Source: Arthrobacter sp.
GTDB lineage: Bacteria > Actinomycetota > Actinomycetes > Actinomycetales > Micrococcaceae
Length of the DNA: 12,963 nucleotides
Assembly: GCA_018260285.1 (NCBI GenBank)
Contig: JAGLBH010000034.1
Location: 1-12,963 of the forward strand
Direction of reading: 5' to 3'
The position numbers and the translations under genes were made by a program. The notes under the pieces were generated by a model, which saw nothing but the letters and a program-made list of their open reading frames with translations, made no database searches and had not been told where the DNA came from. Positions 120 through 9,279 of the stretch are shown here, one piece after another. The number at the start of each line of letters is the position of its first letter. The first letter of the stretch is position 1.

Positions 120-314
120 ATGACTGATGAACGACTCCCGATCTACCGACTTCTCACCGGGCCGGACGACGCGAACTTCTGCCGTCGTGTCAGTGAAGCC
201 CTCTCCCAGGGCTACGTCCTGCACGGCAGTCCCTCCATCACCGTCAAGGACGGTCACGGCTACGCCGCCCAGGCCGTCGTCTGGGCTGGGGAGGGCCTGC
301 CGCCGCGGGTGTGA
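120..314 (+). CDS. DUF1737 domain-containing protein
   Basis: A 64-residue protein that is almost entirely one DUF1737 domain. The family hallmark IYRLLTGPDDANFCRRVSEAL lies near the N-terminus (about residues 8-28). The typical 'GY-LHGSPSITV' segment (about 31-42) and the closing 'AAQAVVW' (about 49-55) follow. The family's biochemical function is unknown; its small size suggests a cytoplasmic accessory protein. The start is ATG with no obvious ribosome binding site but a -10-like hexamer 6 bases upstream, so the mRNA may be leaderless. The stop TGA overlaps a GTG codon at 311 in the frame of the next gene. The GIY-YIG gene follows on the same strand 50 bases later, so co-transcription is possible. 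Family assignment is from recalled motif similarity; no role is inferred. Confidence 0.82.
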   Translation: MTDERLPIYRLLTGPDDANFCRRVSEALSQGYVLHGSPSITVKDGHGYAAQAVVWAGEGLPPRV

Positions 315-352
315 GTTCCCACTGGCCAGGTCTGCACCCCCAGCGGGTCTGT

Positions 353-358
353 GACAAT
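353..358 (+). promoter_or_regulatory. Possible extended -10 for a leaderless GIY-YIG mRNA
   Basis: GACAAT (353-358) is preceded by TGT, giving an extended -10 arrangement, and ends exactly 6 bases before the ATG at 365. The GGAGG at 359-363 is only one base from that ATG, too close for a normal Shine-Dalgarno interaction. A leaderless start at 365 would explain this. No clear -35 was found. Confidence 0.25.
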
Positions 359-364
359 GGAGGC

Positions 365-1300
365 ATGACACAGGGAAAACACGTTCGATTATTCCTGGTC
401 GACGGCAAGCCCGGAGGCCTCATGACCGCAGAGATCATGAATTGGACCGGCCACCTCATCAAGGCCAGCCGCAGCCAGGTGCGTGTTCTCGCTGAGCGCC
501 CAGAGGGAAGCAAGACCGGAGTCTACATTTTGGTGGGCGCCTCCAATGAGCCTCTTGGCAGGCCCCTCGCGTATATCGGCCAAAGTGACAACATCGCCAG
601 GCGGCTCCGCGATCATGAGACGGGGAAAGACTTCTGGAACAAGGTCATCGTCATCACTTCCAAAGATGCGAACCTGACAACAGCCCATGTCCGCTTCCTT
701 GAAGCTCTCTTCATCAACGAGGCCTCCCGGCTCGGGCGCTTCGAGATCGTCAACAGCAACACTCCCACAGGCGGTGCCGACCTCCCCGAAGCTGACTACT
801 CGGACATGCTCCACTTCGCCGAACAGGTCGAGACGCTCCTTCCCCTCCTGGGCATCGAGCTCCTCCGCGGCCGAGATCACGACGACGCCCCTCTCGGATC
901 TGCCCACGATGCCTCAGAATCCCCGACAGGGTCCCCCGTATTCCAGCTGAAACACCAGGTCTTTGACATTGATGCCCGCGCCAAGCTCATCGACTCTGAG
1001 TTCACTGTGCTCAAGGGGTCCCGCGTGGCAGCAGAAATAGCGCCCGTTCGCGGCAGCCACAACGCTGCTACCAGACGCACTGCTGAAAACCGTGCTAAGG
1101 CGATTCAAACTCTCATCGACGAGGGCAGCATTCTCCCGGTCGGAGACGGTGGCGGGGTGACTCAGCGAGACATCGTCTTCAGCACTCCCTCTGCCGCGGC
1201 AGCCACTGTCCAAGGCCGAGCTGCCGTCAACGGCCGCACTGCCTGGGTGACGGAGGACGGACAGGCATTCGGAGACTGGGAAGACAGCCGACATGACTGA
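365..1300 (+). CDS. GIY-YIG nuclease family protein with C-terminal DUF4357
   Basis: A 311-residue two-domain protein. An N-terminal segment (about 8-40; LFLVDG, then TAEIMNWTGH) is typical of GIY-YIG/DUF4357 proteins. The GIY-YIG domain follows: 'GVYILVG' (52-58), 'AYIGQSDNIARRLRDHE' (69-85) with the conserved Tyr-Ile-Gly and Arg, and the candidate catalytic Glu in 'FLEALFI' (about 113) with Asn118. Residues about 205-305 match DUF4357: 'FTVLKGSRVA', then 'STPSAAA' and 'VNGRTAW'. GIY-YIG enzymes cut DNA with a metal ion; members with this layout are widespread and mostly uncharacterised. The frame is open back to a GTG at 311 that overlaps the DUF1737 stop, but the 18 extra residues do not look like the family, so ATG 365 is preferred. 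Its base composition looks less GC-rich than the cyd genes, consistent with an accessory gene. Family confident; substrate unknown. Confidence 0.85.
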   Translation: MTQGKHVRLFLVDGKPGGLMTAEIMNWTGHLIKASRSQVRVLAERPEGSKTGVYILVGASNEPLGRPLAYIGQSDNIARRLRDHETGKDFWNKVIVITSKDANLTTAHVRFLEALFINEASRLGRFEIVNSNTPTGGADLPEADYSDMLHFAEQVETLLPLLGIELLRGRDHDDAPLGSAHDASESPTGSPVFQLKHQVFDIDARAKLIDSEFTVLKGSRVAAEIAPVRGSHNAATRRTAENRAKAIQTLIDEGSILPVGDGGGVTQRDIVFSTPSAAAATVQGRAAVNGRTAWVTEDGQAFGDWEDSRHD

Positions 1301-1447: not shown

Positions 1448-1933
1448 CTAAGCCTCGTCCTGGACCGGCAACTTGAAGTAGAACCCGCTTTCGAAGCCCT
1501 CTCGCGACATCGAGTCGAGAAGCTCGTCCCGAACCTCATCCAGACGCATCTCGTAGGCAACCAGGTCGCTCAAACGAACACGGCGGTGCCTTCCCACTTT
1601 CGTAAAGGGAATCTCCCCTCCTTCGAGGAGCTTGACGAGGGACGGCCGCGACATGGCAAGAAAATCTGCAGCCTGCTGAGTAGTCATCTGCTGGTCATTC
1701 GGCATCACCGACACACCGCGTCCTGCGGACAGCGCTTCAGCGACCGACACCAGCGCCTCATATAGGGGAGCCGGAAGCTCGCGCTCCTCCCCGGTCTGAC
1801 TGATCAGCCGAGCGACGCTGCGCTCTCTCCCGTTGGGCGTACTCTCCAAGAACTTGGTGAACTCCTCGAGCTCAGCCTGCTGCTCCGGAGAGGGAATGAA
1901 TGTCGACCGCTCCGACGAAACTGCTGATGCCAT
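1448..1933 (-). CDS. HTH (excisionase/antitoxin-type) DNA-binding protein
   Basis: A 161-residue protein with a predicted helix-turn-helix of the HTH_17/excisionase type at about residues 83-128. 'MTTQQAADFLAMSRPSLVKLL' supplies the helices, then 'GEIPFTKVGRHRRVRLSDLVAYE' the wing. The N-terminal half is helical and acidic, with no motif recognised. In actinobacteria such proteins often precede a PIN-domain ribonuclease and act as its antitoxin and as autorepressor. Here only a possible toxin remnant follows at 1435, so it may be an orphan. ATG 1933 was chosen because an AAGGAGGG ribosome binding site (1938-1945) sits 4 bases upstream. The frame extends to 1984, but that would place the start inside the promoter. 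A palindromic site in the promoter spacer suggests autoregulation. An excisionase-like role is an alternative, but no integrase is present. Confidence 0.8.
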   Translation of the reverse strand: MASAVSSERSTFIPSPEQQAELEEFTKFLESTPNGRERSVARLISQTGEERELPAPLYEALVSVAEALSAGRGVSVMPNDQQMTTQQAADFLAMSRPSLVKLLEGGEIPFTKVGRHRRVRLSDLVAYEMRLDEVRDELLDSMSREGFESGFYFKLPVQDEA

Positions 1934-1955
1934 TGGCCCTCCTTCTTCACGAGCA

Positions 1956-1984
1956 ACCCTATTCGAAATATTCGAAACCATCAA
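1956..1984 (-). promoter_or_regulatory. Promoter and operator of the HTH antitoxin-like gene
   Basis: Read on the bottom strand, a -35-like TTGATG (1979-1984) and a -10-like TAGGGT (1956-1961) are separated by exactly 17 bases. The spacer holds two TTCGAA hexamers (1962-1967 and 1971-1976) with a 9-base repeat period, giving a nearly symmetrical 15-bp element. The AAGGAGGG ribosome site and the ATG at 1933 follow. A repressor bound here would block RNA polymerase directly. Autoregulation by the downstream HTH protein is inferred. Confidence 0.5.
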
Positions 1985-2083: not shown

Positions 2084-5000
2084 TCAGAGAGTGACAGTCC
2101 GCATCTGCGTCTGCGGTGCAAGCTCAGCGAAGTCCCGGTGGGCCACCACGATGACCGTCCGGCCCGCGAGAGCCACAGAGAGGTCCTGCACCAGGCGGGC
2201 GGCGCCGTCGTGATCCACGTGAGCGGTGGGCTCGTCGAGGAGGAAGACGTCCGCACCCGCCAGCAGGCCCCGCGCAATGGCGACGCGCTGCCGCTCTCCC
2301 CCGGAGAGCCAGGTGCCGCCGGGCCCTGCGGGCTGTTCAGGGTCCATCCCTGGCAGGCCCACGAGCTGCAGTGCTGAGCGAATCTGATCGTCGGTTGCCT
2401 CCGGGAGGGCGAGGCGCAGATTCGAGGAGACGGGAGCGTCGAAGAGGTAAGCATCCTGACCGCACCACATGACGCGGCCGAAACCGGGAGCCTGCACCCA
2501 CTGTCCGTCGATCCGGGAGATGACCTGTCCAGCCTCAGGTCGCTTGAACCCGGCGAGGGCGTCGAGCAGCGTGGACTTGCCGGAGCCGCTCGGCCCCGTG
2601 ATGAGGGTCCAGGCCTCGGGGGTGCCCCGGAAGGTGACCGGACCGATCCGGGGCCCGTTCGTGTAGGCGAGTTCCAGAGCGTCCGCCCCGTGGCCAAGGA
2701 GATCTGAGCAGCGGGTCCGTGCATCTGCCTGCGCGGTGTCTCGCTCGGCACGGAGATCGTTCTCGAGCGCACGTCGGTTGGTCTGCCACGAACGCCACTG
2801 CGGAATAGCCTCAAGCAGCGCAATGTAGGGATCCATGAGCGCGATCTGCAGCAGGGCCAGCGCGGCAAGCACCTCATGCGCAGGCGCGCTCTCCCCCATC
2901 CCGCGTGCAGCCCAGAGAACCGCCAGCGCCGCGAGCCCCTGACCGATGACCACAAGGAGCGCACCGAGCCCGCGGGAGGCCTCAGCACGCCGAAGGACAT
3001 CGCCATACTCGGCGTCCCGGCGCGCAAACTCATCGGCGGCACGCCGCCACGCCCGGCCCAGCAGGAGATCAGGCGCTGCCCGGTAGAGCTGCGTCAGCGT
3101 CCGGCTGAGCCAGGCGTCATGGGCGGTCATCGCGGACGTGGCGCGTGCATCGGCCCGCATCGTCAGCAGGCTCGCCCCGATGCCTGAGATCACCAGGGAG
3201 GCCACGGGGATCCACAGCATGTGCGTCGAGAGCAGGGCGAAGGCGATGAGGCTTCCGAGGCTCACCGCAGCGGCTGAGACTGCCGGGACGAGAGCCCTCG
3301 GCGCTGCATCTCTCACGGCATCGACGGCCGTCACGAGAACCGTGGTCCCGCCGTCCTGACGAGAGATGGTGCGCCAGTGCGCGGGGCTCTCCGCCAGGGC
3401 ATCCCAGAGGCGCAGGCGAAGATCCGCCGCGTAGGCGAGCATCCCCCGGTGCGTTGCCAGCCTCTCGGCATACCGAGACGCGGCGCGGAACAGGCCGAAG
3501 GCGCGCACGCCGACAATCGCCACGGACAGGTACATGATCGCCGGCTGCTGGGATGCGCGGACGATGAGCCACCCGGACAGCGCCGTGAGGGCCGCAGCCG
3601 AGCATGCCGAGATAACGGCGAGGAGCAGCCCCTGCCGCACATGCCTGTTCGTCAGGAGATGCGGAATCGCGCCATCGCCATCCGCAGCGGTCCCTGCCTC
3701 GGCTGCCGATTCCTCTCGAGCCGCCGTCGGGGCCAGCGAAGGCACGTCGACTGGTTCCACGTGCCCCGTTCGAGCGTCCTCGCCCGAGCCTCCCGGCACC
3801 AGCGTGATGACCCGATCGGCCCTCTCCATGACCTCGCGGTCATGGGTGACGACGACGACGGCCCGACCTCGGGCAGCCTCCTCGAGAAGGGAGATGACCG
3901 CTCGGGCGCTCTCGGCGTCGAGCTGTGACGTCGGCTCGTCAGCGAGCACGGGAATGCCGCCCTGCGCGTCAGAGGCGGCGAGCGTGCGGATGACGGCGAG
4001 TCGACGCTGCTCCCCCGGGCTGAGCAGGGCAATGGAGCGCTCGGCGAGGTGCCCCAGTCCGAGGGCTTGGAGCATCTCGCGGGCCCCCTCGGAGCTGAGA
4101 TGCTCTCCGCCATAGAGACCGACTTCCTCAAGCGGGGTCTCCCTGAGGAAGACGGGCGCCTGCGGCATCATGACGGTCGGCGCGGCGAAAAGCGACCCGC
4201 GGAGGACTGGGGCATCCTCGTGATCGCCGCGCTCCGCTCCGGAGAGCAGCGCAAGAAGGGTCGATTTCCCGCAGCCGCTCGGGCCGGCCAAGGCGGTGAG
4301 CCCCGGAGCAGCTGGAATCCTCAGATCCAGTCCCGGCACAAGGAGACGCTCTCCCCTGAGCAGGTCGCCCTCGACACGGGCGACGTCCGAACCGTTCGCG
4401 CTGGAAGAGGCGGTCTCCTGAACGGGGTGCTCCTCGACGACCGCCTCGGCGCGCTTGAGCGCAAGCTGGCCGTCCTCGGCCGCGTGGAAGGCCTGACCAA
4501 CCTCCCGAAGCGGCGTGTAGCACTCGGGCGCGAGGATGAGGGCCACCAGACCCGCATAGAGCGTCATGTCCCCGTGGATGAGCCGCAGGCCGATGACGAC
4601 GGCGACGAGCGCCACGGACATCGTGGCGATGAGCTCCAGGGCGAGCGAAGAGAGGAACGCCACCCGCAGGCTCTGCATGACCGAGTCTGTGTACTCGCGA
4701 GAGACGGCGGCGAGCCCGCGACGCTGCTGCCGGGCACGCCCCAGGGACACGAGGACGGAGAGCCCCCGGGCCAGCTCGGCGACGGTCTCGGTGAGGCGGC
4801 GCACCGCGGCGGAAAGCTCTGAGGTCCGCTCAGCCGTGTACTTGCCGATGAGGATCATGAAGACCGGCACGAGCGGCAGGGTGAGCGCGATGACGAGGGC
4901 CGAGGGCCAGTCGACGAGGACAATCCTGACGAGCAGGAACACGGGGATGATCGCGGAGTTCACGGCCGCCGGAATGAAGCCGGTGAAGTACGGGGTCATG

Positions 5001-5347
5001 TCCCGCAGGCCGCGTGACGCCAGGGCGACGTCGTCGACATCCCCTCGCGCGTGGGGATGGGAGAGTTTGGAGGAGAGGAGCGAGAGGCGCTGGCGGGCGG
5101 CGACGTCGCTCGCCATGCGGGCCGTGAGCCGCGGGGTGATTAAGGCCGCCGCACCCCGGGACGCGGCGCCGAAGAGAGCCAGTGCGGTGATGAGCGTCCA
5201 GTTCTGGTCGCCCGCCAGGCCGATTCCCTGGGCAAGCGCCTCCGCGAGAGCGATGAGCCCCAGGGAACGAGCGACGGCCGCCCCCGCCAGGCCCGCCTGA
5301 AGTGGGCGGGACACGGGCAGGGACGGCCGTCGGGTAGAGGTGCTCAC
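2084..5347 (-). CDS. cydDC: Fused CydD-CydC thiol reductant ABC exporter
   Basis: A 1087-residue inner-membrane ABC exporter with both half-transporters in one chain. CydDC exports cysteine/glutathione-type thiols and is needed to assemble cytochrome bd. The first membrane domain (about 20-290) includes the CydD-like 'LALELIATMSVALVAVVIG' and 'LILAPECYTPLREVGQAFHA'. Nucleotide-binding domain 1 has Walker A at 355-362, signature LSPGE (442-446), Walker B ending DEP (470-472) and switch His502. An Ala/Glu-rich linker (about 520-565) leads to the CydC-like membrane domain (about 566-850; 'ALSGWLIV', 'AFGLFRAASRYAERL'). Domain 2 has Walker A at 918-925, canonical LSGGE (1014-1018), Walker B 1034-1040 and His1070. 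The first signature is degenerate (Pro for Gly), so the two ATP sites are probably unequal. The start is GTG, 9 bases after cydB, with a weak ribosome site, suggesting translational coupling. It is the last gene of the operon. Confidence 0.93.
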   Translation of the reverse strand: MSTSTRRPSLPVSRPLQAGLAGAAVARSLGLIALAEALAQGIGLAGDQNWTLITALALFGAASRGAAALITPRLTARMASDVAARQRLSLLSSKLSHPHARGDVDDVALASRGLRDMTPYFTGFIPAAVNSAIIPVFLLVRIVLVDWPSALVIALTLPLVPVFMILIGKYTAERTSELSAAVRRLTETVAELARGLSVLVSLGRARQQRRGLAAVSREYTDSVMQSLRVAFLSSLALELIATMSVALVAVVIGLRLIHGDMTLYAGLVALILAPECYTPLREVGQAFHAAEDGQLALKRAEAVVEEHPVQETASSSANGSDVARVEGDLLRGERLLVPGLDLRIPAAPGLTALAGPSGCGKSTLLALLSGAERGDHEDAPVLRGSLFAAPTVMMPQAPVFLRETPLEEVGLYGGEHLSSEGAREMLQALGLGHLAERSIALLSPGEQRRLAVIRTLAASDAQGGIPVLADEPTSQLDAESARAVISLLEEAARGRAVVVVTHDREVMERADRVITLVPGGSGEDARTGHVEPVDVPSLAPTAAREESAAEAGTAADGDGAIPHLLTNRHVRQGLLLAVISACSAAALTALSGWLIVRASQQPAIMYLSVAIVGVRAFGLFRAASRYAERLATHRGMLAYAADLRLRLWDALAESPAHWRTISRQDGGTTVLVTAVDAVRDAAPRALVPAVSAAAVSLGSLIAFALLSTHMLWIPVASLVISGIGASLLTMRADARATSAMTAHDAWLSRTLTQLYRAAPDLLLGRAWRRAADEFARRDAEYGDVLRRAEASRGLGALLVVIGQGLAALAVLWAARGMGESAPAHEVLAALALLQIALMDPYIALLEAIPQWRSWQTNRRALENDLRAERDTAQADARTRCSDLLGHGADALELAYTNGPRIGPVTFRGTPEAWTLITGPSGSGKSTLLDALAGFKRPEAGQVISRIDGQWVQAPGFGRVMWCGQDAYLFDAPVSSNLRLALPEATDDQIRSALQLVGLPGMDPEQPAGPGGTWLSGGERQRVAIARGLLAGADVFLLDEPTAHVDHDGAARLVQDLSVALAGRTVIVVAHRDFAELAPQTQMRTVTL

Positions 5348-5356
5348 GCTGTGGCG

Positions 5357-6394
5357 CTAGCCTTTCTGGGTGCGAAGGATCTGTGCGGGGAAGTCGTGAG
5401 CCTCGGGGAGGTTCTCCACGCGCAGTCGCTTGCGGAAGACCCAGTAGGTCCACGCCTGGTAGGCCAGAACGAGCGGAACGCCGAACGCGGCCACACCCGT
5501 CATGACTCCGAGCGTATACGGGCTCGAGGCCGCGTTCTGGACTGTCAGGCTGAACGCCGGGTCCAGAGTGGACGGCAGGACCACGGGGTACGCGGACGTG
5601 AAGATCGAGGACACGCCTGCCACGAGGAAGGTTCCGAGAGCGATGAATGCCTTCATCTCCTCATCCTTCCGCGCGAACAGCCATGCGGCTACGAGTGCCG
5701 CCGCCGCGACGACGACGAGACCCAGCCCCGCGAAGTCCATGGCCCGGACGCCCACGAGGATGGCCCACACGGCAGCCGGAGCGCAGAGCGGGATCATCCA
5801 GACCTTGAGGGCGTTGCGAGCGCGAACGCGCATCTCGCCGTCGGTCTTGAGGGAGAGGAAGGCGAGGGCCTGGGCGATCGAGAAGCCGATGACCGCGAGC
5901 GCTCCGAGAATCGCGAAGAGAATCACCGAGAGAATCGGAGAGCCGGCCACGCGGTCTCCGTTCCCGTTGATGGGAAGGCCCGTGGTGGAGAGAGCAAGCG
6001 CTGCCCCGATGCCGCCGGCGGCGCCGATCGAGCCGAGGTTGAGAGCCCAGTCCCAGCCGTTGCGCCACTTCTCACCGGGCATCTTGCCTCGGTACTCGAA
6101 GGCGACCGCTCGGAAGATGAGCGCCACGAGCACGAGGAGAAGCGGAAGGTAGAGGCCGGAGAAGAGAGCCGCGTACCACTTGGGGAACGCCGCAAAGGTC
6201 GCGCCGCCCGCCGTGAGCAGCCAGACCTCGTTGCCGTCCCACACGGGGCCGATGGTGTTGATCATGAGTCGGCGCTCCTTGTCCGTGCGCCCGAAAGTGC
6301 GCAGCAGGATGCCGATGCCGAGGTCAAAGCCCTCGAGGAAGAGATAGCCGATCCACAGGACCGCGATGAGAATAAACCAGAGAGTGTCCAACAT
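5357..6394 (-). CDS. cydB: Cytochrome bd ubiquinol/menaquinol oxidase subunit II
   Basis: A 345-residue integral membrane subunit of the bd oxidase, which reduces oxygen to water with electrons from quinol. It opens with the family signature 'IGYLFLEGFDLGIGIL' (about 15-30) and carries the highly conserved 'GPVWDGNEVW' (49-58) and 'FPKWYAALFSGLYLPLLL' (about 70-87). Several hydrophobic segments fit the family's eight helices, and the length is normal. It pairs with CydA. The ATG at 6394 has an AGGAG ribosome site (6400-6404) 5 bases upstream that overlaps the cydA stop (6403-6405), an arrangement that favours coupled translation. The cydDC start lies 9 bases downstream. No damaged residues were noticed. 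Confidence 0.95.
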   Translation of the reverse strand: MLDTLWFILIAVLWIGYLFLEGFDLGIGILLRTFGRTDKERRLMINTIGPVWDGNEVWLLTAGGATFAAFPKWYAALFSGLYLPLLLVLVALIFRAVAFEYRGKMPGEKWRNGWDWALNLGSIGAAGGIGAALALSTTGLPINGNGDRVAGSPILSVILFAILGALAVIGFSIAQALAFLSLKTDGEMRVRARNALKVWMIPLCAPAAVWAILVGVRAMDFAGLGLVVVAAAALVAAWLFARKDEEMKAFIALGTFLVAGVSSIFTSAYPVVLPSTLDPAFSLTVQNAASSPYTLGVMTGVAAFGVPLVLAYQAWTYWVFRKRLRVENLPEAHDFPAQILRTQKG

Positions 6395-6399
6395 GGCGG

Positions 6400-6404
6400 C
6401 TCCT
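6400..6404 (-). promoter_or_regulatory. cydB ribosome binding site overlapping the cydA stop codon
   Basis: AGGAG read on the bottom strand overlaps the TAG stop of cydA and lies 5 bases before the cydB ATG. This links translation of the two oxidase subunits. Confidence 0.6.
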
Positions 6405-7980
6405 AGTAGGCGAAGGCGAGGACGTTGCGCTTGTCCTCATCGTCGGACGGGTGGGACTGATCCTCGAGGAGCTCGGGCATGGCGCTCGGCACGCCGCCGC
6501 GAACGAACTTCACGAGAAGCTTGACCTCGATGACCGCGAGCACGCCGTAGACGGCCGTGAGCACGATGAGCGAGGTGAGGATCTCACCGGCAGAGACGCC
6601 CGGCGAGACGGCTGCTGCCGTGTACATGAACACCTGGTCGACGCCGGTGGCCGAGGGGTTCGGAGCCACGATGAACGGCTGACGGCCCATCTCGGTGAAG
6701 ACCCAGCCTGCGGAGTTCGCGCCGAACTGGGCGAGAATGCCGAGGATTGCGGCGCGCATGAGCCACTTGCTCTCAGGCACGGTGCCCTTGCGGAGGATGA
6801 ACCATGCGATGAACGCCGCGAGGGCCGCAAGGCCGCCGAAGGTGATCATCATGCGGAAGCCCCAGTAGGTGACGTACATGACCGGCACGTAGTCGATCTT
6901 CTGGCCTGCGCGGTCCCCGTAGATCGCGTTGTCCGGGAGGTTCGTCCCGTACTTCTGCTCGTACTCGGGGACCAGGGTGTTGACGCCCTTGACCTGGGTG
7001 TTGAAGTCGCCGTTGGCCAGGAAGCTGAGCAGCCCCGGAACCTCGATGACCGCGTGGATGTTGTCACAGTTCTGTCCCGCGCCCTTGCCAACGGGGTTGA
7101 CGGAGAGGACGGAGAAACCCGTGCCGTCATGGCAGGCTGCCTCAGCGGCGGCCATCTTCATCGGCTGCTGCTGGAACATGAGCTTTGCCTGGAGGTCGCC
7201 GGTGACGGCGACGCCTGCGAAGGCGACCATCGCGAGGACGGCGCCGATGCGTGCGGACGTGAGCCAGACGCGGTGATCGGTCTTGTCACGCCCGGAGGCC
7301 AGGTGCTCGCCGACGACGACCGCTCCCTTGGCATCTACCGTGTCGATGCCGTCAGTGCGGCGACGCCACAGGTGGTACCAGGCGATTCCCAGAAGGAAGC
7401 TGCCGGCCACGGCCAGACCGCCGGTGATGGTGTGGGAGAAGGCGAGAATGGCCGTGTTGTTCGTCAGGACGGCCACGATGTCCGTCATGACGGGGCGGCC
7501 GTCCTTCATCTCGATGCCGACGGGGTGCTGCATCCAGGAGTTGGCCACGATGATGAAGTAGGCGGAGAGCCAGGTCGCGATGGCCGCAGCCCAGATGGTT
7601 GCGAGGTGAATCTTCTTGGGGAGGCGGTCCCAGCCGAAGATCCACAGACCGAGGAAGGTGGACTCCACGAAGAAGGCGAGGAGCGCCTCCATCGCGAGCG
7701 GAGCCCCGAAGACGTCACCGACGAACTTGCTGTACTCGCTCCAGGCCATGCCGAACTGGAACTCCTGCACAAGGCCTGTGACCACGCCGATGATGAAGTT
7801 GATGAGGAACAGCTTGCCCCAGAACTTGGTCATCCGCTTGAACTCGGGCTTTCCGGTGCGGACCCAGACAGTCTGAAGGGCCGCTGTGGTCACTCCGAGA
7901 CCCAGAGTGAGCGGGACCATGAGGAAGTGGTAAACGGTTGTGATGCCGAACTGCCACCGTGCTAATTCGAGTGCTTCCAC
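6403..7980 (-). CDS. cydA: Cytochrome bd ubiquinol/menaquinol oxidase subunit I
   Basis: A 525-residue membrane subunit that binds the three hemes and oxidises quinol. Compared with E. coli CydA: His18 (E. coli H19), Glu98 and Glu106 (E99, E107; oxygen-site proton path), His183 (H186), Met377/378 (M393 region) and Glu430 in 'GWVFTEMGRQP' (E445) are present. The quinol loop keeps 'QPMKMAAAEA' with Lys275 and Glu280 (K252, E257). The loop is of the short type and contains two cysteines (283 and 305); a disulfide is possible. GTG 7980 was chosen because it gives the standard N-terminus ('VEALELARWQFGITT') and has AGAAAG about 8 bases upstream. The frame is open to 8115, but that would run through the operators. 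It is the first gene of cydA-cydB-cydDC, divergent from the BlaI gene across 155 bases. Confidence 0.95.
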   Translation of the reverse strand: MEALELARWQFGITTVYHFLMVPLTLGLGVTTAALQTVWVRTGKPEFKRMTKFWGKLFLINFIIGVVTGLVQEFQFGMAWSEYSKFVGDVFGAPLAMEALLAFFVESTFLGLWIFGWDRLPKKIHLATIWAAAIATWLSAYFIIVANSWMQHPVGIEMKDGRPVMTDIVAVLTNNTAILAFSHTITGGLAVAGSFLLGIAWYHLWRRRTDGIDTVDAKGAVVVGEHLASGRDKTDHRVWLTSARIGAVLAMVAFAGVAVTGDLQAKLMFQQQPMKMAAAEAACHDGTGFSVLSVNPVGKGAGQNCDNIHAVIEVPGLLSFLANGDFNTQVKGVNTLVPEYEQKYGTNLPDNAIYGDRAGQKIDYVPVMYVTYWGFRMMITFGGLAALAAFIAWFILRKGTVPESKWLMRAAILGILAQFGANSAGWVFTEMGRQPFIVAPNPSATGVDQVFMYTAAAVSPGVSAGEILTSLIVLTAVYGVLAVIEVKLLVKFVRGGVPSAMPELLEDQSHPSDDEDKRNVLAFAY

Positions 7981-8010
7981 AAGGGTACTTTCTGCTGACA
8001 GGGGGACGAC

Positions 8011-8027
8011 TTCTACGATCCGTAGAA
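8011..8027. promoter_or_regulatory. Palindromic operator proximal to cydA (BlaI-type candidate)
   Basis: TTCTAC-GATCC-GTAGAA is a perfect 6-bp inverted repeat with a 5-base spacer, 31 bases upstream of the cydA GTG. It matches the second palindrome at 8083-8099 at the arms but not in the spacer, as expected for a dimeric winged-helix repressor. A -10-like TAAGAT on the bottom strand (8039-8044) lies just upstream, so bound repressor would sit at the start of the cyd transcript. Assignment to the adjacent BlaI-family protein is inferred. Confidence 0.6.
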
Positions 8028-8038
8028 ATTCACTTTCT

Positions 8039-8044
8039 ATCTTA
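8039..8044 (-). promoter_or_regulatory. Candidate -10 for the cyd operon
   Basis: TAAGAT on the bottom strand fits the TAnnnT pattern and would place the transcript start near 8032, next to the cydA-proximal palindrome. No good -35 is seen 16-18 bases upstream. A TATTCT near 8097-8102 is an alternative with a longer leader. Confidence 0.25.
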
Positions 8045-8082
8045 GCCCCCAGTCGCGGCCTGGTCCGGCCCGCCGCAGCCGC

Positions 8083-8099
8083 CTCTACTTCTTGTAGAA
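8083..8099. promoter_or_regulatory. Palindromic operator proximal to the BlaI-family gene
   Basis: Contains TCTAC-TTCTT-GTAGA (8084-8098) plus a shared terminal A, the same palindrome as at 8011-8027. It overlaps a top-strand -10-like TAGAAT (8095-8100), so a bound repressor would block transcription of the BlaI/M56 pair. The two palindrome centres are 72 bp apart, close to seven helical turns. Confidence 0.6.
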
Positions 8100-8100
8100 T
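8095..8100 (+). promoter_or_regulatory. Candidate -10 for the BlaI/M56 operon
   Basis: TAGAAT matches five of six bases of TATAAT and lies 35 bases before the BlaI-family ATG. It overlaps the right arm of the operator at 8083-8099. No convincing -35 is visible in the GC-rich sequence upstream. Confidence 0.35.
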
Positions 8101-8135
8101 AGGCTGATCATTCACTTCGGATACAAGGAGCTCCC

Positions 8136-8489
8136 ATGGCGGTTCTCGGCGACCTCGAGCGCGACGTCATGAATCATCTCTGGGCTTCGCCGGAGCCGCT
8201 CTCGGCCACCGAGGTTCGGGACGCCCTCGCCTTGGACCACACGCGCAGCCTCGCCGTGACCACGGTTCTGACCGTCCTCTCCCGCCTCGAGAAGAAGGCG
8301 CTCGTCTCCCGCGAGCGGGATGCGCGGCCCCACCGCTACGCGCCCACGCAGTCGCGGGCTGACCACACCGCGGCCCTCATGGCGGACGTCCTCGACTCGG
8401 CCAATGACCGCGAGGCTGTCCTCGCCCGGTTCGTCGGCCAGGTCTCCGAGGGCGAGGCAGCCATGCTGCGCCGCATTCTCTCCTCCTGA
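8136..8489 (+). CDS. BlaI/MecI/CopY-family transcriptional repressor
   Basis: A 117-residue protein of normal family length. Residues 1-70 form a winged helix: 'LGDLERDVMNHLWASPEPLSATEVRDAL' (helices 1-2), then 'RSLAVTTVLTVLSRLEKKALV' (about 37-57, recognition helix) and the wing 'RPHRYAPTQS'. The C-terminal part (about 75-117) is the dimerisation helix region. BlaI-type repressors bind palindromic operators as dimers and are released when an M56 membrane protease cleaves them; the M56 gene follows 10 bases downstream. ATG 8136 has AAGGAG at 8125-8130. Two matching palindromes in the divergent cydA-BlaI gap are the likely targets, giving autoregulation and control of the cyd operon. The usual Asn-Phe cleavage site of staphylococcal BlaI is not evident; an Arg-Phe occurs in the same area. 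No beta-lactamase gene is nearby. Confidence 0.9.
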   Translation: MAVLGDLERDVMNHLWASPEPLSATEVRDALALDHTRSLAVTTVLTVLSRLEKKALVSRERDARPHRYAPTQSRADHTAALMADVLDSANDREAVLARFVGQVSEGEAAMLRRILSS

Positions 8490-8499
8490 TCTCTCCCGC

Positions 8500-9279
8500 G
8501 TGCTCGTTCTCTCCGGCCTTCTCGGCCTTCTCGCTCTTGCTCTCGCCTGGCCTGTGCCCATTCTTCTCTCGCGCGCGTCGTGGCCTGCTCGCTCCCCTGT
8601 CCGAGCCATGGTCCTCTGGCAGCTCATCGCGCTGGCCGGCGGTCTCTCCATGCTCGGAGCTCTCCTGTTCTGGGGACTTGACGGCACAGGCTTCATCCGT
8701 CTTGTCGCCCTGAGCGCGAGCGCGCTGCTCTTCCTCCATCTGGTCCTCACCCTGGTCATCACGGGGCTCCGGATGGCGCGGCGGCGTCGTCGTCATCTCG
8801 ACGCGCTCCGGCTCGTGGCTCATGAGGCTCCGGAGGCGCGCGGACGCCTCGTCGTGGACTCGGCGCTCCCCCTGGCGTACTGCCTCCCCTCGACTGGCGG
8901 GTCGATCACCGTGGTGACGGACGGGATCCTGCGGGCGCTCAAGCCCCAGGAGCTCGAGGCGGTCCTGGCCCATGAGCGCGCGCACCTGACCCAGCGGCAT
9001 GACTACCTCATCTGGGCCTTCTCCGCCTGGCGGGCGGCGCTGCCGTGGCTCCCGACGTCCTCGCTGGCCCTCGCCTCAGTGGCAGAGCTCATCGAGTACC
9101 TGGCGGACGACACCGCCTGCGAGTCCCACCGGTCCGCGGACCTCGCGAGGGCCCTCCTCGTCGTCTCTCACGCGACCTCAGGCGCAGATCCCGTGAAAGA
9201 CGACGACGGTCCTCTCTCCGCTGAAGCCAGCGTCACCGGACGCACCGTGCGCAGGGCGCTGCGGCTCATCGAGTCCTGA
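8500..9279 (+). CDS. M56 family (BlaR1-like) membrane metallopeptidase
   Basis: A 259-residue membrane protease. Predicted transmembrane segments lie at about 2-23, 37-60 and 67-90, then a basic loop (RMARRRRRH). 'LPLAYCLPS' (about 123-131) is a family motif. The zinc site is 'HERAH' (158-162, HEXXH), with Glu199 in 'IEYLADD' a likely third ligand. M56 proteases cleave the partner BlaI repressor when activated. This protein lacks the penicillin-binding sensor domain of staphylococcal BlaR1, as is usual in actinobacteria, so the signal is unknown. It is also short, with no clear membrane helix after the zinc site region. GTG 8500, 10 bases after the BlaI stop, gives the hydrophobic N-terminus. 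The same frame is open upstream within the BlaI gene but encodes no family sequence there. The ribosome site is weak, suggesting coupling to BlaI. Confidence 0.85.
   Translation: MLVLSGLLGLLALALAWPVPILLSRASWPARSPVRAMVLWQLIALAGGLSMLGALLFWGLDGTGFIRLVALSASALLFLHLVLTLVITGLRMARRRRRHLDALRLVAHEAPEARGRLVVDSALPLAYCLPSTGGSITVVTDGILRALKPQELEAVLAHERAHLTQRHDYLIWAFSAWRAALPWLPTSSLALASVAELIEYLADDTACESHRSADLARALLVVSHATSGADPVKDDDGPLSAEASVTGRTVRRALRLIES

What the first reader, a model, noticed from the sequence alone, without database searches (positions are those of the whole stretch)
7981..8135. BlaI/M56 switch divergent from the cytochrome bd operon with shared operators
The BlaI-family repressor and its M56 protease are transcribed away from cydA-cydB-cydDC. 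The 155-bp gap carries two near-identical palindromes (TCTAC-N5-GTAGA), one by each gene. The simplest reading is that one repressor controls itself and the bd oxidase operon. BlaI/BlaR systems are known mainly for beta-lactam response, and M. tuberculosis BlaI has been reported to affect genes beyond beta-lactamase, including ATP synthase. A link between cell-wall stress sensing and terminal oxidase choice would be noteworthy. The palindromes and gene order are seen; the regulation is inferred.
Basis: partly seen in the sequence, partly recalled or inferred. Interest (0 to 1): 0.72.

Follow-up and report, generated by a model that had tools for sequence, protein, structure and literature searches.

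The report
BlaI operators governing a respiratory regulon
Two conserved DNA switches between a BlaI-type repressor and the cytochrome bd genes belong to a set found in front of oxidase, heme-making and repressor genes in many related soil bacteria, which suggests that this 'penicillin-resistance' type of switch mainly runs respiration there.

Summary
Observation confirmed: the 155-bp cydA-blaI gap holds two TCTAC-N5-GTAGA palindromes. They are operators by phylogenetic footprinting: 29 of 30 related blaI loci have 1-3 exact copies, all 61 copies lie in the upstream gap, and 53 of 61 spacers differ. The other exact sites of this genome precede hmp, hemQ, ppk2 and a CopC operon; one-mismatch sites precede ctaC, ctaE-qcr and an ABC/SufR promoter. 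In genomes with a BlaI orthologue the site occurs at hemQ in 17/26 (exact), ctaC 23/26 and ctaE 15/26 (at most 1 mismatch); in genomes without a close one, 0/4 each. The cell-wall reading is not supported: no penicillin-binding sensor domain was found on the protease and no exact site at 29 PF13354 loci. Prior art: a paper states that M. tuberculosis BlaI binds the cytochrome bd and ATP-synthase promoters. Verdict: a much broader variant of a known system. Binding, direction of regulation and signal are inferred.

The parts
8011..8027 (.). Operator 1 (cydA side), TTCTACGATCCGTAGAA
   Evidence: an exact TCTAC-N5-GTAGA copy is present in 25 of the 26 examined loci with cydA divergent
8083..8099 (.). 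Operator 2 (blaI side), CTCTACTTCTTGTAGAA
   Evidence: exact copies upstream of blaI in 29 of 30 loci
8136..8489 (+). blaI, 117-aa BlaI/MecI-family repressor, no cysteine
   Evidence: PF03965, 84.9 bits against cut-off 22.6; only PDB match 2g9w, E 1.7e-23
8500..9279 (+). M48/M56-type membrane metalloprotease, 259 aa, HERAH motif, no sensor domain found
   Evidence: Pfam M48 over cut-off, M56 under it; three TM-like segments and invariant Cys128
6403..7980 (-). cydA, cytochrome bd oxidase subunit I
   Evidence: PF01654 E 2e-148
5357..6394 (-). cydB, cytochrome bd oxidase subunit II
   Evidence: PF02322; TIGR00203 over cut-off
2084..5347 (-). fused cydD-cydC transporter
   Evidence: TIGR02857 (residues 20-516) and TIGR02868 (569-1071), both over cut-off

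Best explanation
The two palindromes are BlaI operators. A BlaI dimer binds TTCTAC-N5-GTAGAA and represses its own blaI-protease operon and cydABDC; in trans it acts on a regulon of the aerobic respiratory chain: here ctaC, ctaE-qcr, hemQ, an ABC/SufR promoter that leads to heme A synthase (ctaA) in a relative, a CopC operon, hmp and ppk2. When respiration is short of capacity (blocked oxidase, low heme or copper, NO, falling proton motive force) the membrane protease is thought to cut BlaI and so release both oxidase branches, their heme and copper supply, and itself. Shown: the sites, their conservation and their association with a BlaI orthologue. Inferred: BlaI binding, repression rather than activation, proteolysis, and the signal.
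For: Exact sites in 29 of 30 blaI loci, all 61 in the upstream gap, 53 of 61 spacers different. Sites at hemQ 17/26 exact, ctaC 23/26 and ctaE 15/26 with at most 1 mismatch, against 0/4 each in genomes without a close BlaI orthologue; 29 permuted half-sites reach at most 1 genome, except one that reaches 8 for ctaC at 1 mismatch. All 6 exact sites of the own genome lie 9-47 bp ahead of a gene start: cydA, blaI, hmp, hemQ, ppk2, CopC operon. Of 48 further loci in 12 relatives, 33 face oxidase, heme, oxidase-assembly, copper, ATP-synthase, hmp or ppk2 genes. cydA away from blaI keeps two sites in G036 and G006. ATP-synthase operon 17/26 against 0/4. The only clear PF03965 gene in the own genome is this one.
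Against: No binding or expression data for this lineage. Genome counts alone are not decisive: the reversed pattern is as frequent or more so in some genomes, e.g. G029 and G032. The ctaC site departs from the palindrome at one end in most genomes. ctaE lacks a recognisable site in 11 of 26 genomes, and the own genus lacks one at the ATP-synthase operon. No sigma-70-like promoter was found in the gap. Some BlaI-bearing genomes of the order (G037, G041, G042, G052) have no exact site.
Confidence: 0.8

Rival explanations
1. One reading: a BlaI/BlaR pair that senses beta-lactams or cell-wall damage and thereby shifts terminal-oxidase use.
For: Family name; a paper reports that a beta-lactam plus clavulanate induces blaR-blaI and cydAB in M. 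tuberculosis (PMC5473688 passages).
Against: No sensor domain found on the window protease or six relatives. No exact site in 29 PF13354 loci; 6 of the 29 have a one-mismatch match, one of them (L208) about 265 bp ahead of the matched gene, and two are the same place. Other beta-lactamase classes were not tested.
Confidence: 0.1
2. The palindromes bind another regulator (for example the Rrf2-type protein encoded near hmp, or a CRP) and BlaI is merely a neighbour.
For: An Rrf2-family gene lies beside the hmp site; a CRP-type gene carries a site in G017. BlaI-bearing genomes of other families can lack the site.
Against: The site is found upstream of blaI in 29 of 30 loci, also in the four where cydA is not adjacent, the pattern expected of autoregulation. 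Within the family, genomes without a close BlaI orthologue lack it at hemQ, ctaC and ctaE.
Confidence: 0.07
3. The palindromes are RNA hairpins (terminators or leader elements) rather than protein-binding sites.
For: Site 1 is scored terminator-like on the plus strand (1 found, 0.2 expected).
Against: The half-sites are identical in all 61 exact copies while the spacer varies, and one-mismatch sites show no paired change; copies are often repeated about 24-25 bp apart and precede many unlinked genes. The 61 were collected as exact matches, so the first point is partly by construction.
Confidence: 0.03

Closest known systems
Mycobacterium tuberculosis BlaI-BlaR (Rv1846c-Rv1845c)
   Same: Its structure 2g9w (identity of that entry as Rv1846c recalled) is the only PDB match of the window BlaI. 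Its protease partner also lacks the extracellular sensor, and it is stated to bind the cytochrome bd and ATP-synthase promoters (PMC5473688 passages; ATP synthase also PMC12565901). Relatives of the window carry a site ahead of the ATP-synthase operon.
   Different: Here blaI is divergent from cydA, sites also precede ctaC, ctaE-qcr, hemQ, hmp, ppk2 and copper genes, and no exact site was found at PF13354 loci, whereas M. tuberculosis BlaI regulates blaC. The own genus shows no site at the ATP-synthase operon. The M. tuberculosis operator was not compared.
Staphylococcal BlaI-BlaR1 / MecI-MecR1
   Same: Repressor family and a neighbouring membrane metalloprotease gene; de-repression by repressor cleavage is the family mechanism (recalled; also introduced in PMC5473688).
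   Different: BlaR1 senses beta-lactams with an extracellular penicillin-binding domain, not found here; its classical target is the beta-lactamase.
HrrSA of Corynebacterium glutamicum
   Same: Controls nearly the same gene set: ctaE-qcrCAB, ctaD, ctaCF, cydAB, ctaA, ctaB, heme-synthesis genes and hemQ (PMC7337898 passages).
   Different: A two-component, heme-responsive system, not a BlaI repressor; it activates the oxidase genes and represses heme synthesis.

Membership tests
BlaI/MecI/CopY repressors (PF03965) | Penicillinase_R domain over Pfam's cut-off | tested here: met
   84.9 bits against 22.6
BlaI/MecI/CopY repressors (PF03965) | Binds a palindromic operator at its own promoter | tested here: inconclusive
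   Conserved palindrome upstream of blaI in 29 of 30 loci; binding itself is not testable here
BlaR1/MecR1 beta-lactam receptors | Extracellular penicillin-binding sensor domain | tested here: not met
   No such Pfam match in the window protease or six relatives at E up to 1
BlaR1/MecR1 beta-lactam receptors | M56 zinc-protease domain with HExxH | tested here: inconclusive
   HERAH present; M56 model 21.5 bits, under the cut-off of 31; M48 passed
Mycobacterial-type BlaI regulon | Operator at the cytochrome bd operon | tested here: met
   Two sites in the window; 25 of 26 examined cydA-linked loci
Mycobacterial-type BlaI regulon | Operator at the ATP-synthase operon | tested here: not met
   Own genome and both same-genus relatives: none within 1.5 kb of atpB; in the family 17 of 26 genomes with BlaI (3 exact) against 0 of 4
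Mycobacterial-type BlaI regulon | Operator at a class A beta-lactamase gene | tested here: not met
   0 exact sites in 29 PF13354 loci from 14 of 26 genomes, many of them weak hits; 6 with one mismatch

The most novel reading that the evidence does not exclude
In actinobacteria the sensorless BlaI-protease pair is primarily a respiratory-capacity homeostat: the membrane protease reads the state of the electron-transport chain (quinone, heme or thiol redox, perhaps through its invariant AYC(L/I/V)P cysteine) and takes BlaI off both oxidase branches, heme a/b synthesis, oxidase assembly and ATP synthase. The beta-lactam role known from M. tuberculosis would be secondary.
Probability: 0.5. Interest if true: 0.82.

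Novelty: new variant of a known kind. Interest (0 to 1): 0.62.

Why it matters
How mycobacteria trigger a BlaR that lacks the sensor domain is described as unknown (PMC5473688 passages). An operator map in which the targets are respiratory makes the question testable in harmless soil bacteria. It predicts that one repressor coordinates both oxidase branches with heme and copper supply, a job done by the unrelated HrrSA system in Corynebacterium, and it supplies an operator with which to find unknown oxidase-assembly genes.

Tried and rejected
Raw genome counts of the palindrome were rejected as evidence on their own, because the reversed-pattern control is at times as high. A hairpin/terminator reading of site 1: see rivals. 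The beta-lactamase link was tested with PF13354 only: 0 exact sites in 29 loci, 6 with one mismatch, two of these the same place.

Other one-mismatch sites of the own genome: 28 in all. Four were read: ctaE, ctaC, one inside the hemQ coding region, and one overlapping the 3' end of a 3-hydroxyacyl-CoA-dehydrogenase-like ORF (C383). The other 24 were read: 22 inside genes, one at the ABC/SufR promoter, one intergenic at an unrelated gene (L263).

G013 was counted as lacking BlaI; it has an exact site ahead of cydA and a divergent BlaI-protease pair (37% identity) with a one-mismatch site nearby, so it is a weak negative. The structure prediction of the protease had not finished and is not used.

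Full report
THE OBSERVATION. The gap 7981-8135 lies between cydA (minus strand, GTG at 7980) and blaI (ATG at 8136). It holds TCTACGATCCGTAGA (8012-8026) and TCTACTTCTTGTAGA (8084-8098), the only exact matches in the window. The 17-mer form with at most one mismatch occurs twice against 0.01 expected. The host genome is an unnamed 1.98-Mb draft, 82% complete, with one clear Penicillinase_R gene and one hit under the cut-off (21 bits against 22.6). The family name Micrococcaceae is recalled.

THE SITE IS AN OPERATOR. Of 59 related genomes 39 have a BlaI homologue. I examined the 30 matches for which one search gave loci (L014-L043, the window's own included). cydA is divergent in 26 of 30. 29 of 30 carry exact sites (7 loci one, 12 two, 10 three) and L043 carries none; L043 has one copy with a 6-base spacer. 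All 61 exact copies lie in the upstream gap, none elsewhere in these loci, and 53 of the 61 spacers differ. The outer bases extend the core to TTCTAC-N5-GTAGAA: T before it in 27 of 29 and A after it in 27 of 29 for the blaI-nearest site, 29 of 29 for both at the cydA-nearest site. The first spacer base is a purine in 27 of 29 and the last a pyrimidine in 29 of 29 at cydA, in 18 and 26 of 29 at blaI. Of 32 spacings between successive copies 20 are 18-26 bp, about two DNA turns. In the window the spacing is 72 bp, one site per gene.

REGULON IN THE OWN GENOME. Six exact sites: cydA and blaI; 29 bp ahead of the called start of hmp (flavohaemoglobin); 25-40 bp ahead of hemQ, depending on the start codon; 47 bp ahead of ppk2; and 9 bp ahead of a 219-aa membrane protein followed by CopC. 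One-mismatch sites include the promoters of ctaE-qcr (111 bp) and ctaC (98 bp) and the divergent ABC/SufR promoter. In the relative G005 the matching ABC genes are followed by ctaA, heme A synthase, next to a ctaB-like gene. Of the 28 one-mismatch sites 22 lie inside genes; another is inside hemQ.

REGULON IN RELATIVES. Sites were counted upstream (-400 to +30) of orthologues, 30 loci per gene: 26 from genomes with a BlaI orthologue and 4 without a close one (G004, G007, G015, G034 for hemQ; G007, G013, G015, G034 for ctaE and ctaC; G004 gave no match for either cta gene). hemQ: exact 17/26 against 0/4; two of the nine misses do carry a site, the own genome (truncated contig) and G014 (436 bp ahead of the match start). 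ctaE: exact 8/26, at most one mismatch 15/26, against 0/4. ctaC: exact 3/26, at most one mismatch 23/26, against 0/4, mostly TCTAC-N5-GTAGT. 29 permuted half-sites reach at most one genome, except one that reaches 8 for ctaC at one mismatch. Within 1.5 kb of atpB: 17/26 (3 exact) against 0/4 (G004, G013, G015, G034), best permuted control 7. Of six site-bearing layouts printed, five have the site in the intergenic stretch ahead of the first small gene of the operon (in G006 only 2 bp ahead of the called start), and in G003 it overlaps the end of that gene.

CONTEXTS OF EXACT SITES. For 12 relatives I fetched 50 loci: every exact site of 11 genomes and part of G002's, whose listing was cut. Two (L063, L083) are blaI loci. 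The other 48, read from translations, with Pfam run on examples only: hemQ 11, hmp 4, ctaE 3, copper-type 3 (one, L081, without a Pfam match), ppk2 2, CtaG/CopD 2, SURF1 2, ABC/SufR 2, TlpA-like 2, ATP synthase 1, cydA away from blaI 1: 33 in all. The rest: an unknown small membrane protein 5, CRP 1, three single uncertain genes, six unclear. In a few cases the site falls inside the called 5' end of the ORF. Two more genomes, G014 and G010, were taken after the regulon had been proposed: of 20 sites 12 face ctaC (2), hemQ (2), hemA/hemE (1), ABC-type (2), SURF1, ctaB, CopD, TlpA-like and sdhC (1 each, sdhC at 244 bp); 3 face unknown small membrane proteins; 5 are other or unclear. Three of the 12 (both ctaC, one hemQ) were already known, so this is not a fully independent set.

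CONTROLS AND COUNTER-EVIDENCE. In one search family genomes without a close orthologue have 0, 0, 0, 1 and 2 exact sites (G004, G007, G015, G034, G013) and the 21 with one have 3-16; but the reversed pattern gives 0-10, sometimes as many, so counts alone prove little. Of 13 order-level genomes 11 have none and two have one; four with a BlaI homologue (G037, G041, G042, G052) have none. G007, G015 and G034 have no cydA at E 1e-30; G004 has cydA without an exact site; G013 has cydA with one, and a divergent BlaI-protease pair. Ten cydA places in nine order-level genomes without BlaI have no site. G014 and G026 have BlaI but no cydA, so the pair is not tied to cyd. Of 20 out-of-family blaI loci fetched, eight have a cydA or cydA-like gene divergent; six of these have exact sites (L223-L226, L232, L233), L231 only one-mismatch ones, L241 none; the other 12 have no exact site.

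THE PROTEASE. It is 259 aa here and 286-370 aa in 28 relatives (L015 gave none). It passes Pfam M48 but not M56, and no sensor domain was found in it or in six relatives. A cysteine in AYC(L/I/V)P, 30 residues before HExxH, is invariant in 29 of 29 in-group proteins and 18 of 18 out-of-family ones (two of 20 loci gave no protein). HExxH itself was a selection criterion in both calls. The repressor has no cysteine. A redox role of that cysteine is a guess.

HOW IT LIKELY WORKS. BlaI dimers sit on single or paired sites near the starts and repress; the protease, encoded just downstream of blaI, cuts BlaI under a respiratory signal. That both oxidase branches and heme supply share the operator suggests a capacity response (make more respiratory chain) rather than a swap of one oxidase for the other. 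Repression, cleavage and signal are inferred from the family.

KNOWN WORK. Passages in PMC5473688 say that M. tuberculosis BlaI binds the cytochrome bd and ATP-synthase promoters, citing Sala et al. 2009, and that mycobacterial BlaR lacks the sensor; I could not read Sala et al.. PMC12565901 (abstract and passages) reports BlaI binding at the Rv1303 promoter and lowered transcript of its M. smegmatis homologue. PMC7337898 (passages) describes HrrSA. Nine searches listed no paper whose title or abstract start describes a BlaI regulon with ctaC, ctaE, hemQ or ctaA; most hits were not opened and the library lacks most subscription journals. So the cyd link itself is not new; the breadth, the operator and its conservation in this family appear to be.

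Noticed in passing
L062, L066, L072, L082, L084, L323, L337: A small membrane protein (called ORFs 117-186 aa, alike by eye; no Pfam match in the two tested, L084 and L323) has an exact operator 9-110 bp upstream in seven genomes: a candidate unknown respiratory assembly factor.
   Followed up: partly
ctaC upstream regions, loci L154-L182: The ctaC site is mostly asymmetric (GTAGT instead of GTAGA) and sits in a strongly conserved stretch, GGTAAGC ahead of it and AAAACT after it, perhaps a promoter or a second protein's site.
   Followed up: no
8500-9279: The protease has an invariant AYC(L/I/V)P cysteine (residue 128) 30 residues before HExxH, in and outside the family; its role is unknown.
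   Followed up: partly
genome G004: A family member with no match for ctaC or ctaE and no BlaI orthologue, but with cydA and hemQ: it may respire through cytochrome bd alone.
   Followed up: no
311-1300 (+) and 1448-1984 (-): A DUF4357 protein and an excisionase-type HTH protein at the left end of the window, with no evident link to the finding.
   Followed up: no
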